64,000 nucleotides of DNA, from the NCBI GenBank assembly GCA_011947345.1, contig JAAVTG010000670.1, positions 372,001 through 436,000 on the forward strand, read 5' to 3'. This document shows positions 53,430 to 63,519 of this stretch, piece after piece. Every line of letters begins with the position of its first letter. The stretch's first letter is position 1. The stretch is from Phytophthora quininea. Its lineage: Eukaryota; Oomycota; Peronosporomycetes; Peronosporales; Peronosporaceae. The position numbers and the translations under genes were made by a program. The notes below the pieces were generated by a model. The model saw nothing but the letters and a program-made list of their open reading frames with translations. It was not told the DNA's origin and ran no database searches.

Positions 53430-56400
53430 TCAATGAGGACCGTTTTCTGCGAGACCGTCGTCGTTCCCTCGCTGCTTTTGAATGTGTTTGCAGCCCCCGA
53501 TTCGAGCTTTCAGGACGAGGTCTTTGGCCTCCAGAGCACTCACTTCCTGCAATTGCGCCAACATCTCCATCGTCGACGTGTAAACGAACGAGTTCGGCAG
53601 TTCCATCTCAATTCCGTCACTGTCTCCGTGTCTTTTCAAGTCATTCCCCATTACACTATGGTCGAACGACGCTGCAGCCTGAGCGGTCCACGCAGCCTTG
53701 TTGCGAGAGCGGTACTCTGGAAATTCGCGGAGAAGGCGTTCGTACGGTTCGTGGTCGAGACGATAGAGCTCTGTGAAGGTCTGTGCAATACACGTCTCCA
53801 GTCGCGAGATCCCGTACAGCAGCGACAACTCGCCAAAGAATTCTCCTCGCTCGCGTGGACTTTCGGTCGCTTCCAGTTTGACCAGGACACGACCCTGAGC
53901 AATGAAATACATGCAACGGTCGACGTCGCCAGCCTCGACAACGGACTCGCCTTCGGAGCACACGACATACCGCAGGCAGACCAACAACGCGCGGAGAAAT
54001 GGCTCGCCCAAGCTACGAAAGACTTCGACGCGAACCACAAAGTCTTGCAGCGTTGCCAGCACGACGTCCTCGTAAAGGGCTTGCGAGACGCCGTTGATGA
54101 CGGCAAAGTCGCTCTCGCCGCGGGACCGATGCCACATGTGTCCATAGTAAGCCTTAATTTGTCGCTTGAGTGGCTTGGGGAGTTCGTGCTGCTCCAAGTA
54201 CAATTGCAGCTCCATCAACTGCTGCTCAAAGCGAGCTTCCCGACGTGTATTTGAATCTAACAACTCCCTTGGGCACCAACAAGAGCCCCGTAGATGTAAA
54301 TGGCCCAGAGAGTGATCCCAATCTCGACTAGCAGTTCTATATTGTTCATGGACAAGATGTCACCGTAAAACAGCGTAGTGATGCATTCCATCGAGAAGTA
54401 CAAGGACCGCAGGTATTTCCTCCCAAGCGAGACGTGTTCGAGAAAGTCATTGGGCACTTCTGCAGGTCCGATAAAAGTAAGCATACCGGAAGTTGACAGC
54501 CACGAGACGCCAAATTGACGCAATCCGTAGGCGCTCGCAGCAAACCAAATGCAAGCGATGAAATGGCCCATCGCGAGGTACGACGCCAAGGCACGCAGAA
54601 AGGAAATCAGAGACTCGCTCATGTCCACGTTGCAGTCGTAAACGACATACTGGAGCAGCTCCTCTACCAGATGATCGACTCGCCAAACAAAAAGAAGTCG
54701 ATTGACCCGCAAAACCATCGCGTTGTCCACCCGTTCGAGTTGATAACGGGCTCCTGTTCAATCGATACACGACCAAGTAGCAGCAACTCCAGAGGCAGGA
54801 TGGCCAAGATGTCCAACTTCAGTCCTGGGCTTGCAGTGAAAATATTTAAGAGCCTTTGCCTTCTTGAGTGTGACGCAGCCTCGCTGCTATGACTTGCAAC
54901 ACGAATTTTGTACACAATATCGATAAAGCATAGCACGTCAAGGAAGCCTTCAAACCCCGCCCACTTGTTTAAATTGCTGTTGTGCAGATCGATGAGTTCG
55001 TGTGCAAAACACACCTTGAAAGGTGTGACGATTACATAGTACAGGGCCACCACGAGCATCGTCGCGCTCCACAGTTTGCCAAGCCGCTTCAGAAGTTTGA
55101 TAAATGTTTTAACTTTCTTGTCGTTCAGCTTTAGATCTTGTCCGAGTAGCCTGAGAGTCCCCGTTTCAAGCTTACCGGAAGACGTTTTCGACCCCGAACG
55201 ACGAAAGCTTCCCATGATGCTCGAACTAGATCGCTGGAAAGAAGAGCGAAGAGCTCCAAACTTGCTTCTCCCATCGAGCTGATTCCAATCGTGGTATCGT
55301 TGATACAAGCCGATTTGGGCTTCGTACTTCGGCCGCTGACAGCGCTGTAAGGTTTCAAAATCAATGTCAGCACCGCCTGCGAGTCGCGTATCCGTGAGGG
55401 CTTTATTTTCCAGCTCGTCGTGCATATTGTCGAAGAATTTATCCCCAAATATTGGTAAAGAGCGGCAACGTCTCATTCCCATTGTTTCTGGTTCTATGGC
55501 AGTCTTTGTCTTGGATGTCAGCACTGCATTGACGAGCTGTTTGGTGATCACTGACCTACGGCGCTCGTAAATCGGCGCTTACTTTTAGAGGACTTTTTCC
55601 CAATATTACTTGCACGGGTTTGTAAGGGAAGTAGAAGGCCCGGTTTATTGACTCTGGCCTGCTGCTTCAGACTCGTTTTCCGTGGATTTCTCGCCATGAG
55701 ATCAGACCCTCGTTTTTGCTTACCAAGTTCGCCCAGACGGACCGCCTGCATTCGCTCCAAGTGTACCGATTTCTTTCGCATCAGATTGATCTTAGGTTGC
55801 AGTCGACCTGACGAAGCGTTTGATTGTGTCAGAGTGTGAGGAATCAGTGCTTGGAGCATTTTGTGCACGTTATGCTGCAGGAGTGTCATCAAGCGGAAGC
55901 GCTGCCAGCACTCGTTCTCCAGTCGACGTAGATACTCGTCCTTAAAAGTTACACGCAGGTGTTTGCTGATTGGGTTCACGTCCAGGATAAATTGGTGCAA
56001 CCCGATGTCTTTTGTTGAGCTCTGGCTGGGCGAGGTGACTGCATTTTCACGAATGTTTACACGCTTTTTGGCGCTCGTAACTGCATTTTGACATTTCGGG
56101 TCATGCTTGTCACGATGCTTTTCCTGGACAGCGCCGCTGTCACCTGAGCGGCTTGGTATTGCTGAGTGAAGTAGTCAGCTTTGGCAAGAAGAAAGTTTGC
56201 CTTGCTATCCAGCATGACCGATTCAGGTGTGGGGATTGACCCTAACGCCGATTGTGGTGATTTCGAGACCGCACGGAAGTTTATCGAGTTGCTACTCGAA
56301 ACATCCAGTACTGGCGGGACTGATTTCGTTTCTTGACGTGATAAAAGTTGGCGCTTGACCTTGTTGGCAATACGCAAACTCTGCCGCTGGTAGCGCTGAA

Positions 56401-59400
56401 TACGATTGTTAACCCAGTCAACTATGGAATGCAGCGCGTACTTCTGTTCCTGGTTGTCTGACGGATCTCCACCGGGTGTCCACAACTCCTCCCAATCGCG
56501 CTTTGATATGCGAAGAACTTCGCAGCTTGAGATTGCGCGGACTGTGACAAGACGCCGTTGGTTTGGAAGGAAGAACGCAACTTCGCCTAGTAGAGCTCCC
56601 TCCAGGATCACTGCAACGCTTGCCACACATTTTGACCAGAAAGCTGCCGCTACTCCTTTGCGCAATGCGCAGAGATGGTTTCCGGTGGTTCCTTCGAGCA
56701 AAACGTCATCGCCGGGAATGAAGAGCTCAGCATGCAATCGCAAAGCTAGATTGTTTATCTGAGACGTAGACAAAAAGGGTCTGATGGGAAGGCGAGCAAG
56801 TGAACAGCCATAGATCTCCATCGTGAGTTTCAGTCGTAGGTTTGCTGACAACTCATGCACGAGGTGGTTCAAGCCACGGCCTTGGGTTCTTTCAAACTGA
56901 GCGTGGAAGAAAAACTCGACGCGTTCCCGTAGAACCTCCGGTATATCGTGCGACGTAGCGAATGTGTCAAATGCTGTGACTCGGTTCTTGTACTTCTTCG
57001 TTTCCTTACCAAAATCCAAGATGAGCTCTGAAATCTCACCGACGATATATCCCATCGCGAACGTACAAGCTAAACAGGTTAGCACAGCCCACAGTGTTCC
57101 AGCCACACTACGGGGACGATTTCACTCGACCCGACGAGTAGTAATGTCGTAATGGCCCAGTAAAACGTCTTGGCGTAGAGAATCGGTAATGTATGCTGAT
57201 ACGCATGCAGTAGATGGTCATTTTGAAGCCAGCAATTGTCATTGTCAACGCATTCATCATCAGAAATCCACACAAAGATGCAACCAACGAAATGAGCCAC
57301 GAGAACGAGAATAATCACCAGCTTTGCAGGGCCGAGAACAGCAGACACATTCCGAGATGCGAAGTGCTGCTGCACTTGCACGATCACTTCGTCTAGATAG
57401 ACCCACAACTCAAGACAGCGAATCAGTCGAGGCATTCGACAGAGGTTAACGATGAGAGAATCGCTCCTTGTCGGCACATAGAGTGGCAACGACGCAAGCA
57501 GGTCCCATTTAAACTCAGTGCGACGATAAACTTTGTCTACGTAAGAACGATGGATCAGATTGTCAAAGCCAACTTCTGGGGAGCCAAAATAATACAATCG
57601 AAGATAAATGTCCACTGCAATGTAAAAGTCACCGCACAGATCGGTGACCCACACTGCTGTGTTGAGACTGCTGGAGAAGTGCAGGTGGGAGTGGAATCCG
57701 ACACGGAAAACGATGAACAACGCGTTATAGACGTTCCAGAGTGTGATGCCAGTAGTCCAAATGTTCGTGAACATAATGCGCGTAGCGTAAGCATCTCGAG
57801 TTAGAATTTTTGTATTTCCAGCAGCAATATCACGTTGATAGAAAAATGATGGGGTTAGTAGTACATGAGGCTTCAACTTTAAGCATTCCAGATTGCGAGC
57901 AGTGCGTCGAAAGATTTGTTGCTGCTCTGAGCAAATAACGTCTGCTTCTAACCGCATATCCCGTAAATCGTCTTCAAACTTCCTCTGGATGACGCTGAAA
58001 TGCTCTCGAGTCATGACCGAAGCGTGAACGGTCGAAGCAGCAACCAACGTAGCGGAAAAAGAACGACGAAGTAGAAATTCGCAAACTCCGTAGCTGTCCC
58101 CATCGTGAAGCCCAACACCGGTACCTTGCGAGAGCGATAGAACACGTCGACCTTGCTACTTTTTAACAACACAAAAACTCGCGACAAACGTCGCCTTCGA
58201 TGCAAATTGTTTCGCCGTTTTCGTAGCTGCGATGACGGAATTTTCCAGTAACTTCGTCGAGAAAACTCAGACTAGCCGAATCAAACAGAGCAACATTTTT
58301 CGCTGCAGTTGAATGAAGTAATGATGAGATCTGATAGCAGAGTCTGTCGGGAAGATTAGCGAGAAGTTGCGACTCGTAGGCTACTTGCCGTCCAGTAAAG
58401 TGATTATTGTAGAACCTACGAATTTCAGCACTCAATCTTTCGGAAATAGCCATCTTCCCCATGGCTGTATTCAGAGTGTTTAGCAGTTCGAGATGTTGGC
58501 GCCGAGTTGTCATCATGTTAGAGATAATGCTCGACATGGCCCCTACCACGCCAAAATTGATAATGCCGCCCACGAAGATCCAAACTGCGGCAAAATACGT
58601 TTCCGCTGTAGAGAAGGCTACAATATCTCCATAACCTACAGCTGTGAGGGTGGCTACGGCCCAGTACACTGCTCGGACGTACCCAAAGTCGATGTTGTAG
58701 ATGGCAGCTTTGTTTTCGACTGGAAACGACGTCCCCACGTTGATATAGCAATCAAACTTGACCCAAGAGCAGTTCTCAAAATGGGTTGCTTGTCGAAGAC
58801 ATTCGGAAGTGGACAATTCTAGCGAAAGAGCAAGTGAATTGTCGCTGCGGTACGCTTGTGCGGTGTGTGGGATCCAGGCCATCTCAAACCAAACACAGCC
58901 GACAATGTGCAAAAGCAGCGTGACAGCGAGCAGCAGCGAACCGATCAATTGTAGCTTGGAACTGATGCTATAGGATTCACTCAGATCACTCACCAAACTA
59001 GGTAGGAACCGCAGTCGAAGCAGTCGTGGGAATCGTAAAAACCAAAAGTACTCTCTCATAGCGCCACTTTCCAACACCAGTCCGATTGGCAGCCACGCAA
59101 ACACGTCGAGGAAGAAACCATGTTCTCGATAGGCTGCAAAGATCAGGGTGGGGTCCACAATGTTTAGCATGACGATGGGGTCCAAGTAGCCTAGATACCG
59201 TGAACGTAAAATAATATCGACACCGAAAAAGACTTCTACCATAAAACTGCACAGATAGCGAAGTCCAACAACAGGCTCCTTCGTAAATACATGCTCGCCT
59301 TCTGCCATGGCGATGAACACCGTTTGATAGGGAACCTCAAACGCGACGTAAATGGTCCCGGCAAGTCGCAACGTATCCCATAGTGTTCGAAACGACGAGT

Positions 59401-61295
59401 CTGGGTGGCTCCAGTGAACATTAACTTTCGCTCCCGGTCGGTACATCCCGATCGACATTCGGCGACTTGTCTTACGAGTACTATCTGCATCATTTACAGC
59501 TTGACCTAACAACTTCTGGGTCTTGCGCTGCTGCATGTAGTATTTGTCGAGCACGTCATGCATCTGACTGACCACACTTGCTTCCATGCCGCGATAGAAC
59601 TGGGTCACGACTGAATCAAATTTGCTCTTGTCGAGGACGTACAGCTCACAAAACGTTTTGGCTACGATTTTCTCCTCGGATTTTTCAGGGAGAGCAAACA
59701 GATCTCGGCAAAGTAGTCGCCTGCTTGATACTCTTTAAAGAACGTGCTTTTTCGTTTCAAGCTGCCGTTTGCCGACGAAACCATCGCACTGCCGCGAATG
59801 ACGAAGAACATTTGAGTAGTTATCTTCGGTTCGACAATGACGTCTGCTGGTGAATATACGCGGCGTTCAACGACGAGCACGAGCAAATTGATAAACTCAA
59901 TGCTTTCTTTGGCAAGAAAGCAGATTTGCTTCAGCCGACTGGTTTTCAGTGTAGCCACCACTTTTGACTTGAGGTGTTTAGGCAGCATTCGCTGAGCTTC
60001 CTCCCCGTCGAGACTGCGGTGACTACTCCACGAGTAGTTAAAGTAGGCGATCACTCGGCGACGAATTGACCGAGGAATTCCTTTGGAGCGCATATAATCA
60101 CGCGCATTATCTACGTGCGCTGAGTAGGCGGAATACTTGGCATTGCGAAAACGGAAAATAAACAAAAAATTGGCAAGGATGGAAGAGCTGAAGAGTGCCC
60201 TAGGAGCTGCACGAAGATGGCGTAGACCGTCTCCGCATTTGACACCGGCGTGACGTCGCTGTATCCCAGTAGTACCAGTGTTCTCGACGCCCAGTACAGC
60301 GTTCGACCGTATTTCCGCGAGATCGAAGCTCCAATTAGCTGATCCCTGATCACCCAGCTCGTCTCAACATTGGGATTGCACGCATCAAAGGAAATACCGC
60401 ACTGTAAATGTGCAATAAACATATATCCGCAAGCTGCTAAATGACATGACGCAGCACAAAAGGCGATAGTGCGGACAAGACTGTTAAAACCAGCGGATGA
60501 GAGGTGTTGGACCCAGGGTCGATGCGAGTAGATCGAGCTGAGTCGAGAAAAGCACCGGCGGAGTTTGTAGACGCGGCACAGCTTGTTAAATCGGACGAGA
60601 TGAAGCGCGTTGAACTGTCGCGAAACAAGCGGAAAGATTTCCAACGGCAAGAGCGCAACAATTTCCAGCGCCAACTCCCAAGTTCGCCCGAAGTGTTTGT
60701 GTGTGTGCATTCCACTCTCTCCTTCATCGCGTATCTCCAAGGTGCGTCGGATACTCGCCAGTGTCCATTTGGTTTTATCGTGCTTCTGCCCTTCAGCATC
60801 ACGCTTTAATTTAATATCCTTCTCCAATCCATTGATCTCTTCTTCGTACGAGATGGCATTTCTCCACAGACGGTAAACTTTCACAAACTCAACAGCGCCA
60901 GCAATATCTGCAATGACATCCAGCGGGTATAAAACACTAAGCCGCCAAGTCCAGCGATTATAGCCGCTGTCAATTTCACCAAAGGGATCATAGAGAAAGC
61001 CAATCCGGAACGGCACAGAAATGAATAAATACAACAGTATCGAGAGCTTGATAACATCGTTGATCGATTGCCTCGGTGTCCACGAAGTTAGTGCGTACTT
61101 GTTGGCCACAGCAATACGCAAGCGACGTCGAATTCGATCCATTTTTCCTCCAGAACTTTGGCTAGATACCGCCATTTTCATGAATTCATGCTTCGAACGA
61201 GAAACTGGCGACGACCCACTCGAGCTGCCAGCAATCGCCAAAACTTCCGCATCGTCGTCGTCGTAGCCAGCCACGTAAACTTTTCTCAGGGTCAT
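53430..61295 (-). CDS. giant four-repeat voltage-gated-like channel with four cyclic-nucleotide-binding domains
   Basis: Read from ATG 61293-61295 to TGA at 53430, about 2,620 codons hold four channel units, each S1-S6, pore and C-terminal CNBD. Unit 1 (61.3-59.65 kb): S4-like LVRFNKLCRVYKLRR, pore TLVLLGYSDV, CNBD GDYFAEICLL. Unit 2 (59.65-58.0): S4 FLRFPRLLRLRF, pore TLTAVGYGDI, CNBD EGDVCREF then YGVCEFLLRRS. Unit 3 (58.0-56.1): pore TLLLVGSSEI, CNBD LLGEVAFFLPNQRR. A basic linker (56.0-55.5) leads to unit 4: S4 NAMVLRVNRLL, pore TTLFYGDI, CNBD GEFFGELSLL. The unit 1 to 2 junction is one open frame. About nine one-base breaks (near 60199, 59690, 58175, 58100, 57113, 56063, 55578, 54731, 54267) mostly sit in runs and, when bridged, restore expected motifs. 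The layout resembles animal CNGK channels. Splitting into two or more genes remains possible. Confidence 0.8.
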
Positions 61296-61932
61296 ACGAT
61301 CAACACGGCAGTCTCCAACGCCCCCACAAAAATTCTACCGAGAATCATCCGAAAGCAGCAGTTTCAACAATCTAGAAATAGTCGTCATGGACAGCATTGC
61401 CCCGGAAGCTGCCATCCCTGTTGATCGGTACTTTGAAAGATGCAAGCCAAGAACCCTAACAATCTCGCGGCATTCGAACGCCCAGCACTTGGAAGATTGG
61501 TCGTAACGCGGCTGCAGATCCCTTGTGGATCGGCGCGCTGAGCGTTTCTTGGGGAAGATGTCTGCATCGACCGACACTGTGTCAAGGAGGGCATCGTCGT
61601 TAGATACGCTTCAGCTTGCAACGCCTTGCAACAATCCCAGGGCACGGCTCCGAGTGGTTGACTACTAGATCGCCGATTCTACCACTGGCACGGCCCAGTC
61701 ATCTAAGTTAAGCAATTGAAACTCTCTGATGCCGACAAATGCATTAACGAAAAATACAATTAACTACTCCGGGTAAAACTATGCTGGGGTTGGAGAGAAG
61801 CGTATACCCCAGCCCACAGCTGGTCACTACCGGTAATCACCAGTCCGATATTGCTGCTACACACCAATCCTAGTTTGTTTGTATCCGAGAGCTTGGTGTT
61901 CGAGTTGACGACACGCTCTCGATTCCAGTAGC
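61296..61932. other. gap between channel gene and retrotransposon
   Basis: No gene is supported. It should hold the promoter of the minus-strand channel gene. A dispersed repeat lies at 61822-61867. Confidence 0.4.
61822..61867 (+). repeat. dispersed repeat copy 2, also at 31804-31850
   Basis: GGTCACTACCGGTAATCACC followed by AGTCCGATATTGC matches the first copy with a few substitutions. It lies about 65 bp before the retrotransposon remnant. Confidence 0.6.
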
Positions 61933-63519
61933 ATTTTTGCAGATGACACAGTGCTATTCGCCAATGATGCTTCTTCTCTCATAAATGAACTGCAGCTCGT
62001 TGACTGCTACTGCCCGGGATCAGGAGCTAAACTCAACCACTCTAAGAGCGTAATAATGAGTCTCAATAATCACCGAAAGCCTCCCATTCTTGAACCCCTA
62101 CGATCGCTGAGGAAAGGTGACACCGTCAAGTACCTTGGTCTACCATTTGGTAATCGTGATGTTTATCGTGGCAGCGAAAACAAGTGTTTCAAGGAGAAGA
62201 GTTTACGCGCGATCTGTTTGCACATTCACGACGTGAATCCAGTGTAGCGGGCCGCTACCTCGATCAGTTTTGCTTTTTCGAAGTCGACGCCCACCTTATC
62301 CCTCCCAGGGAGGCTCGCGCCTTCCAGCCCGTGAGCCAAGCTGGATAAGTCAATAAGATGATGATGCGTTGCCCCTAACGTTATCGCGCGGTGTTGGATC
62401 GACGAAACTCGATACTTCGACCGAGTTAGCCAAACAATTAGATCACAAGCTGATGGCAAGACTTCTACTTTGGAAACGGCGAGCTCGAACACTCGTGGGA
62501 AGGCGACTAATTGTCCAAGCTATTGTACTGTCGACGATATGGTACTTTACGACGACGACTGTCATTCCCACGAGGTTTATTAAACGGTGGCAAAGCGCTG
62601 TAAAAACGTTCATACTCTACAACCGGGTTGGAGCTAGTCGTGGAGGTATTAACATCGTTCCCACTTCATTTGCCATACAAACACGGCAAGACGATGGAAT
62701 TGGGGTACCAGTGATTATGTACTGCATCCGGAGACAACGTTTTCTCTTCCTTCAAAAATTCGTCAAAGTCCTCGCTTGTCATAATGAAAACGACGAAACA
62801 GTGTGGTATAGACCCATAGCAGAATTACTACGACACCGATATGGGGAATTTGTACGTCCGTGGTCGGGAGAGTTTTTGCTACAAAATCCACCTGAACCTC
62901 CTGGATGGAAAGCAACAATGCTCCCGTTATGGTGGCGTAAACTACTGCAAGATTGGAGACGCTTAAAATGGCCAAGCAAGTACTCATTACGATACACTAG
63001 AATGAAGACACTCCAAAACTCGTTATTCAGCCCAATATGGCGGAATGCATCGACAAATTTCCAAGTGTGGCGCAGACAAGATGCTCATCGCGCACCACTG
63101 GGTACAGGACCTGTCAAGTTCCGGTGCCTCTGTAAAGAGCTTGCTTCAAAAGGCAAATGGTGTATAGCAGACTTTCTAGATACTTCCAATCGATGGCCAA
63201 CGCTCATGGTGTTTCCCAAGGGGGGTCTACCGAGCTACGTCCAATTCTGGGGTCCAGGATTGCACTGACGGATATCACCCAGCTTTATCGACAGCTAATC
63301 CAGGTATTTGAGCGGGTATTGCCACACCCAGAGACAGGTGGAATAAGCGTGGCAACGCGAGGTGCAATGCCACCGACATTTGGACTAACAGTCGGAAAAA
63401 CATCTCGTTTCTTCCCAAATCTAATATCCCAAGACTGGGACGAATGTGACGATGTGAATTGTGTTTTTCTATGGATCGCGCTGTGGAGAGTTTACATATG
63501 GAGTTTATTATGGAGCTAG
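61933..63519 (+). mobile_element. 3' part of a non-LTR retrotransposon (LINE) ORF2
   Basis: The fragment begins in the reverse-transcriptase palm with IFADDTVLFAND, followed by GAKLNHSKSVIMS and VKYLGLPFGNRD, the order seen in L1/Tad-like RTs. After a stop at 62245 and a disturbed stretch, another frame (62369-63268) holds the conserved thumb/C-terminal region: LLLWKRRARTLVGRRLIVQA, IKRWQSAVKTFI and a Trp-rich tail. A final frame continues to 63519 (TGGISVATRGAMPPTF). The 5' part with endonuclease and RT fingers is missing. Dead fragment by truncation and stops; strand and family are clear. Confidence 0.8.

What the first reader, a model, noticed from the sequence alone, without database searches (positions are those of the whole stretch)
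53430..61295. One polypeptide with four channel units, each with its own cyclic-nucleotide-binding domain
Four successive six-helix voltage-gated-like units, each followed by a CNBD, lie head-to-tail on one strand without an internal start, promoter-sized gap or unrelated gene. Units 1 and 2 are joined by a plain open frame, and the other joins need only one-base corrections. A four-repeat cyclic-nucleotide-gated channel in one chain is known from animals (CNGK of sea urchin sperm and fish), where it steers sperm by cGMP. An oomycete counterpart could serve zoospore chemotaxis or cyclic-nucleotide sensing. The sequence shows the architecture; the function is inference.
Basis: partly seen in the sequence, partly recalled or inferred. 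Interest (0 to 1): 0.87.

Follow-up and report, generated by a model that had tools for sequence, protein, structure and literature searches.

The report
Oomycete four-in-one cyclic-nucleotide channel
This oomycete gene region encodes four ion-channel units in a row, each with a cyclic-nucleotide-binding domain; relatives in other oomycetes are annotated as one long protein, and because the four pore sequences differ from one another in a conserved way, the chain is predicted to fold into a single lopsided pore that likely passes mixed cations rather than only potassium.

Summary
Minus strand, 61295-53430: four 6TM-CNBD units, collinear with and 54% identical to a 2,826-aa Phytophthora fragariaefolia protein over the whole query. 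38 of 83 relatives cover at least 90% of the query (Phytophthora, Nothophytophthora, Globisporangium, Pythium, unnamed sources), so four units in one predicted polypeptide is common there. The window copy has at least seven frame changes. Over seven loci of this genome such changes fall mostly at homopolymers and in one direction, and two 97%-identical copies that share some show dN/dS 0.11-0.28: assembly error is likelier than decay, which is not excluded.

The CNGK comparison is right for layout, wrong for the pore. CNGK pores carry GYG/GFG (PMC4749565); here only unit 2 does. Units 1, 3 and 4 typically read GYDD or GFYD, GSRE and FYGD. Asp in filter 1 and Arg in filter 3 tend to be lost together. 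CNBD3 and CNBD4 keep the phosphate-binding arginine; CNBD1 and CNBD2 do not. Published oomycete tandem CNBD channels are two-repeat (PMC7576140). I propose a single-chain, asymmetric, cyclic-nucleotide-gated cation channel; selectivity, ligand and zoospore role are untested.

The parts
53430..61295 (-). four-unit CNBD channel gene (ATG 61295-61293, stop at 53430), interrupted by at least seven frame changes in this assembly
60139..61061 (-). unit 1, S1-S6
   Evidence: tblastn with P0001 75-400; Ion_trans
60255..60266 (-). unit 1 selectivity filter GYSD (most common in the family: GYDD)
59609..59976 (-). CNBD1, aligned phosphate-binding Arg absent in the family (0 of 89)
58517..59380 (-). unit 2, S1-S6; 523-aa open frame 58163-59734
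58625..58636 (-). unit 2 selectivity filter GYGD, the only canonical K+ filter
57988..58288 (-). CNBD2, degenerate in the family (Arg 0 of 93, Glu 0 of 95)
57020..57759 (-). unit 3, S1-S6
57121..57132 (-). unit 3 selectivity filter GSSE (most common in the family: GSRE)
56483..56797 (-). CNBD3, ligand-binding residues kept (Arg 94 of 94 in the family)
55084..56482 (-). long III-IV cytoplasmic linker, borders approximate (557 residues between units in P0001, against 75 and 78 for the other two linkers)
54266..55083 (-). unit 4, S1-S6
54359..54370 (-). unit 4 selectivity filter FYGD
53733..54035 (-). CNBD4, ligand-binding residues kept (Arg 79 of 81 in the family)

Best explanation
The region encodes four 6TM-CNBD channel units in collinear order, relatives of which are annotated as single proteins of about 2,700 residues, and the chain would fold as one pseudotetrameric pore likely opened by cyclic nucleotide on CNBD3 and CNBD4 and predicted to pass cations without strict K+ selectivity. 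Shown: the order, the per-repeat conservation of four different filters, the absence of the phosphate-binding Arg from CNBD1/2 and its retention in CNBD3/4, and the joint loss of Asp (filter 1) and Arg (filter 3) on several branches. Inferred: that Asp and Arg meet in one pore, that the ring is D-G-R-G in most of the family (S-G-S-G in this copy), that it abolishes strict K+ selectivity, and that opening would depolarise the membrane (in contrast to the hyperpolarising CNGK), probably in zoospores. The interruptions of this copy are most likely assembly errors; the gene itself is likely live.
For: Architecture. Each repeat position forms its own 100%-supported clade, Albugo included (14 representative proteins), so the four repeats were distinct before these lineages parted. 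Filters in 97 close relatives (sites with a letter): repeat 2 first and third Gly 94 of 94; repeat 1 third residue never Gly (D 59, Y 20, S 6, N 2 of 87); repeat 3 third residue never Gly (R 79, N 6, K 4, others 4, of 93); repeat 4 first residue never Gly (F 77 of 82). Co-loss: 3 of 3 Asp-loss branches carry Arg-to-Asn (branch-length-weighted chance 3.6e-4); in this genome the window (S/S), L009 (K/G) and L017/18 (G/filter lost) repeat the pattern. CNBD residues. Fold: the C-linker/CNBD3 model (mean pLDDT 73.5) has CNG, SthK, KCNH and HCN structures as best Foldseek matches, E 1e-15 to 6e-13, query TM about 0.47. Purifying selection: dN/dS 0.11-0.32 between near-identical copies. Homopolymers at 30 of 40 frame changes against 11.1 expected.
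Against: No transcript, no electrophysiology. Arg is also lost with Asp kept: P0023, P0003, P0040 and the L011/L014/L019 copies. In the second subfamily filter 1 has Tyr opposite Arg or Lys (17 proteins), and P0101 has Ser opposite Lys. The Asp-Arg pair ranks only 247 of 21,895 inter-unit pairs by MI over 70 sequences (14 of 20,095 within the first subfamily, 55 sequences). Which CNBD1 residue stands at the Arg position depends on the alignment: second-subfamily members have an Arg in the adjoining column. For the window alone 3 of 7 frame changes sit at homopolymers against 2.2 expected; ten full-length HSP70 copies here are uninterrupted; and 17 of 56 matched pieces of the family in this genome hold stop codons, one piece on C865 as many as seven, so some copies do look decayed. 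The unit-2 model is poor (mean pLDDT 58.8). Ligand binding by CNBD3/4 is inferred from residues.
Confidence: 0.6

Rival explanations
1. A true CNGK: a K+-selective, cGMP-gated single-chain channel that hyperpolarises the cell, homologous to that of animals and choanoflagellates.
For: Same 4 x (6TM-CNBD) layout; CNBD3, the site that gates sea-urchin CNGK according to PMC4749565, is the best kept.
Against: Only repeat 2 has GYG; III-IV linker of 557 residues in P0001 against equally short linkers in CNGK (PMC6259924); pairing 1~3/2~4 not recovered. No protein named as an animal CNGK was among the hits, so direct phylogeny is untested.
Confidence: 0.1
2. A non-conducting descendant: the altered filters close the pore and the protein works as a voltage or cyclic-nucleotide sensor or scaffold.
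For: Filters 3 and 4 depart strongly from the K+ motif (GSRE, FYGD); in the first subfamily loss of Asp was not seen to leave Arg alone, as if an unpaired charge were harmful.
Against: Filter 2 is invariant at its two glycines (94 of 94), which a dead pore would not obviously need.
Confidence: 0.2
3. The window copy is a decaying pseudogene of a live family.
For: At least seven frame changes in 7.9 kb, only 3 of 7 at homopolymers; ten HSP70 copies intact in the same assembly; stop codons in 17 of 56 matched pieces of the family.
Against: 30 of 40 frame changes in seven loci at homopolymers, 35 of 40 in one direction; ABC transporter genes in the same window look split too, as do at least two HSP70 copies; dN/dS 0.11-0.28 between L012 and L016, which share frame changes; of the window's own six matched pieces two hold one stop each, and both lie at a frame-change end (positions).
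Confidence: 0.25
4. The functional unit is a two-repeat tandem, as published for oomycetes, and four units reflect two neighbouring genes or joined gene models.
For: PMC7576140 reports two-repeat tandem CNBD channels in Aphanomyces and P. infestans; some P. infestans T30-4 models are short (P0060, 1,458 aa).
Against: Open frames cross the U2-U3 join (window 58155-57079; L010:4910-7207, 766 aa); many annotations give one protein; P0060 ends after repeat 3, so that short model looks truncated.
Confidence: 0.04

Closest known systems
CNGK (sea urchin, zebrafish, choanoflagellate; PMC4749565)
   Same: One chain, four 6TM-CNBD repeats; not all CNBDs competent
   Different: CNGK pores carry GYG/GFG, short equal linkers, nearly identical repeats (PMC4749565, PMC6259924); here one GYG of four, a 557-residue III-IV linker, four divergent repeats (pairwise 17-24% identity in P0001)
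[quoted passage not shown]
   Same: Oomycete tandem CNBD channels; repeats form their own clades
   Different: Four repeats, not two
Nav channels (DEKA filter; PMC6259924)
   Same: Asymmetric single-chain pore; in most of the first subfamily an acidic residue in repeat I and a basic residue in repeat III at one filter level
   Different: Different superfamily branch, K+-channel-type filter, CNBDs present; position not shown to correspond to the DEKA site; selectivity untested
SthK, HCN, CNGA (single-unit CNBD channels)
   Same: Among the nearest solved structures for C-linker/CNBD and pore
   Different: Four separate subunits per channel (recalled), not one chain

Membership tests
CNBD-channel superfamily | 6TM with pore followed by C-linker and CNBD, in each repeat | tested here: met
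   (CNBD2 by alignment to P0001 only)
CNGK | four 6TM-CNBD repeats in one chain | tested here: met
   by sequence, no transcript
CNGK | canonical GYG/GFG filters in the pore repeats | tested here: not met
   repeat 2 only; repeats 1, 3 and 4 deviate by position
CNGK | repeat pairing 1~3 and 2~4 | tested here: inconclusive
   not recovered, nodes joining the repeats 14-80%
CNGK | falls in the animal/choanoflagellate CNGK clade | not testable with these tools
   no protein named as animal CNGK among the hits
CNGK | K+ selectivity and cGMP gating | not testable with these tools
   needs electrophysiology
Two-repeat tandem CNBD channel | exactly two repeats | tested here: not met
   four repeats
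[quoted passage not shown] EEEE/DEKA-type filter | tested here: not met
   CNBDs present, K+-channel-type filters

The most novel reading that the evidence does not exclude
Oomycetes evolved a second, Nav-like asymmetric single-chain pore inside the cyclic-nucleotide channel superfamily: a D(I)-G(II)-R(III)-G(IV) filter ring held by an Asp-Arg ion pair between repeats 1 and 3, gated by two of four CNBDs, giving a depolarising cyclic-nucleotide-gated Na+ or mixed-cation current for zoospore steering, the opposite sign to the CNGK of sperm.
Probability: 0.3. Interest if true: 0.85.

Novelty: new variant of a known kind. Interest (0 to 1): 0.62.

Why it matters
A review (PMC6259924, passages read) states that among four-repeat channels only the Na/Ca/NALCN lineage became asymmetric, while CNGK repeats show no obvious specialisation. 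An oomycete family with a different, conserved filter in each repeat and only two CNBDs that keep the binding residues would be a second case and a natural experiment on how a single-chain pore breaks four-fold symmetry. [quoted passage not shown]

Tried and rejected
Rejected: CNGK membership (filters); separate single-unit genes (open frames across the joins); introns as the general cause of the frame changes (35 of 40 intervals have a DNA gap of 11 bases or less; the other five, 53-80 bases, are not excluded); the idea that the assembly is equally noisy everywhere (ten intact HSP70 copies). Led nowhere: two attempts at a myosin control (not completed); a search with P0082 for CNGK relatives returned three further proteins, none named; deep repeat relations unresolved; a unit-2 model of low confidence.

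Literature: among the papers listed by searches (20 of 170 listed; 20 of 155; 3; 16; 20 of 23; 2; 0; 2), I saw none that reports four-repeat CNBD channels in oomycetes; open-licence papers only, supplements not readable. Seen: passages plus part 2 of 5 of PMC7576140; passages of PMC4749565, PMC6259924, PMC12223298, PMC4820453 and PMC6264045; passages and sections 9 and 11 of PMC5322657; the rest as listings only. PMC12223298 (zoospore membrane proteome) does not mention PPTG_06812 in its main text. Which filter position corresponds to which K+-channel residue, and the role of the phosphate-binding cassette Arg beyond the passage in PMC4749565, are recalled.
Full report
What is there. On the minus strand from ATG 61295 to a stop at 53430 lie four successive channel units, each followed by a cyclic-nucleotide-binding domain. 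The open pieces, joined with X for the search, align with a 2,826-residue protein of Phytophthora fragariaefolia at 54% identity and 100% query cover (P0001). In that search 83 proteins passed E 1e-3 (7,970 candidates scored), 38 of which cover at least 90% of the query in one alignment; these are from Phytophthora, Nothophytophthora, Globisporangium, Pythium and unnamed sources. Albugo candida has a 2,688-residue relative (P0079; 31% identity over 59% of the query in its best alignment) in which all four units are found one by one. A second search with the unit-2 pore region of P0069 (80 hits of 206 candidates) added more members.

One chain. In the window the U1-U2 and U2-U3 joins lie in plain open frames. 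In paralogues of the same genome the three joins are each crossed by a single open frame, of 652, 766 and 775 codons. Together with the annotated relatives this makes one polypeptide the best reading, although no transcript was seen.

The interruptions. Against P0001 the window copy shows seven frame changes in short intervals, one of which seems to hold two changes; a further one in the III-IV linker was too loosely placed to count. Six other loci of this genome show 33 more. Of the 40, 30 intervals contain a run of four or more identical bases against 11.1 expected, and 35 shift the frame in the same one-base sense. L012 and L016 are 97% identical and share changes, so not all events are independent, and for the window alone there is no clear excess (3 of 7 against 2.2). 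L012/L016 and L011/L014 have dN/dS of 0.11-0.32 over the compared frames, which argues that these copies, L012 and L016 with shared frame changes, have been under selection. ABC transporter genes of the same window also look split: in four of them the domains found by Pfam lie in two overlapping or neighbouring frames, and of the fifth only one piece was scanned. Against this, ten full-length HSP70 copies are uninterrupted, while at least two others look split, and 17 of 56 matched pieces of the channel family hold stop codons, one on C865 seven; some of those copies may be decayed. I judge assembly error likelier than decay for the window copy.

The pore. I took 97 close relatives: 107 fetched proteins less ten, namely P0081, P0082, P0084, P0085, P0086, P0106, P0107 (distant), P0087 (eight units), P0080 and P0083 (other domain content). 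The named ones are all oomycetes. The four filters differ by position. Repeat 2 is canonical: both glycines kept in 94 of 94 with a letter there. Repeat 1 mostly reads G-Y-D-D or G-F-Y-D and never has Gly at the third place (0 of 87). Repeat 3 mostly reads G-S-R-E, third place never Gly (0 of 93). Repeat 4 mostly reads F-Y-G-D, first place never Gly (0 of 82). The window has GYSD, GYGD, GSSE, FYGD. CNGK pores carry GYG or GFG (PMC4749565), so K+ selectivity cannot be assumed here.

Repeats 1 and 3 together. Of 83 proteins with both sites, 55 have D/R, 14 Y/R, 4 S/N, 3 Y/K, 2 N/N and one each D/Q, D/S, D/P, S/T, S/K. On one FastTree topology rooted on Albugo, three branches lose Asp and all three also change Arg to Asn; under branch-length weighting that coincidence has probability 3.6e-4. 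In this genome the window (S/S), L009 (K/G) and L017/18 (Gly in filter 1, Asp in filter 2, filter 3 lost) add cases, while L010, L012 and L016 keep D/R and L011, L014 and L019/20 keep Asp with Ser. Arg is also lost with Asp kept in P0023, P0003 (whose filters look damaged) and P0040. Mutual information ranks the pair 14 of 20,095 in the first subfamily and 247 of 21,895 overall. I read this as an ion pair in one shared pore: an Asp may stand alone, an Arg may not, at least in the first subfamily; the second has Tyr there. The level resembles Nav DEKA in having an acid in repeat I and a base in repeat III; that the positions correspond is not claimed.

The binding domains. The phosphate-binding Arg is present in 94 of 94 CNBD3 and 79 of 81 CNBD4, and in 0 of 89 CNBD1 and 0 of 93 CNBD2; the Glu of the cassette is absent from all 95 CNBD2, while CNBD1 has Asp or Glu there (87 of 88). 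In the second subfamily CNBD1 has an Arg in the adjoining column, so its status is less clear. CNBD4 matches the SthK domain at E 2.6e-24 and CNBD3 matches SthK at 1.8e-15, with Gly-Glu and Arg aligned. The C-linker/CNBD3 model matches CNG, SthK, KCNH and HCN structures; the unit-2 model, of low confidence, has AKT1, CNGA1 and HCN1 among its best matches.

History. In a tree of 72 units from 18 proteins each oomycete repeat position forms a 100%-supported clade that includes Albugo, so the four repeats were distinct before these lineages parted. Nodes joining the repeats have 14-80% support. Thalassiosira profunda has a four-unit protein too (P0106), P. infestans a second four-unit family (P0081, present here as L023), and three unnamed proteins (P0082, P0084, P0085) have four units with GYG/GFG-type filters, so four-repeat CNBD channels look wider than published. 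PMC7576140 reports two-repeat tandem CNBD channels in oomycetes and dinoflagellates and four-repeat CNGK in animals and choanoflagellates; one short P. infestans model, P0060, ends after repeat 3, which may show how models get truncated.

Role. Cyclic-nucleotide-related genes of P. infestans are expressed mainly in sporangia and zoospores, though cyclic-nucleotide levels were reported not to change in zoosporogenesis (PMC5322657). Ion-channel domains (PF00520) are depleted in downy mildews, and those that lost zoospores share losses of flagella and calcium-domain genes (PMC6264045). None of this names the gene; a zoospore role is inference.

Noticed in passing
12.3-44.1 kb: A tandem of ABC transporter genes (four, probably five; PDR_assoc found in two) whose domains lie in two or more frames in this assembly (described only).
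   Followed up: partly
47.4-49.7 kb (+) and 50.0-52.4 kb (-): Inverted pair of near-identical genes that look like an exo-1,3-beta-glucanase (by eye), with frame changes at similar places.
   Followed up: no
61909-63268 (+): Open frames that look by eye like a reverse-transcriptase fragment just upstream of the channel gene.
   Followed up: no
L017/L018: Paralogue in which filter 1 reads GYGD and filter 2 GYDD, as if the Asp had moved from repeat 1 to repeat 2, with filter 3 unrecognisable.
   Followed up: partly
P0106 (Thalassiosira profunda): A diatom protein of 2,117 aa with four 6TM-CNBD units; the published survey reports no tandem channels in diatoms (PMC7576140).
   Followed up: partly
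P0087 (Pythium oligandrum): A 4,070-aa predicted protein with eight units (1-2-3-4-1-2-3-4): joined gene models or an eight-unit chain.
   Followed up: no
G000:C573, C866, C865, C718: Clusters of further copies of the four-unit gene; some on small contigs are 97-99% identical to others, perhaps alternative haplotypes.
   Followed up: partly
No downy mildew and no Saprolegnia or Aphanomyces name appears among the named hits; whether the database holds them was not tested.
   Followed up: no
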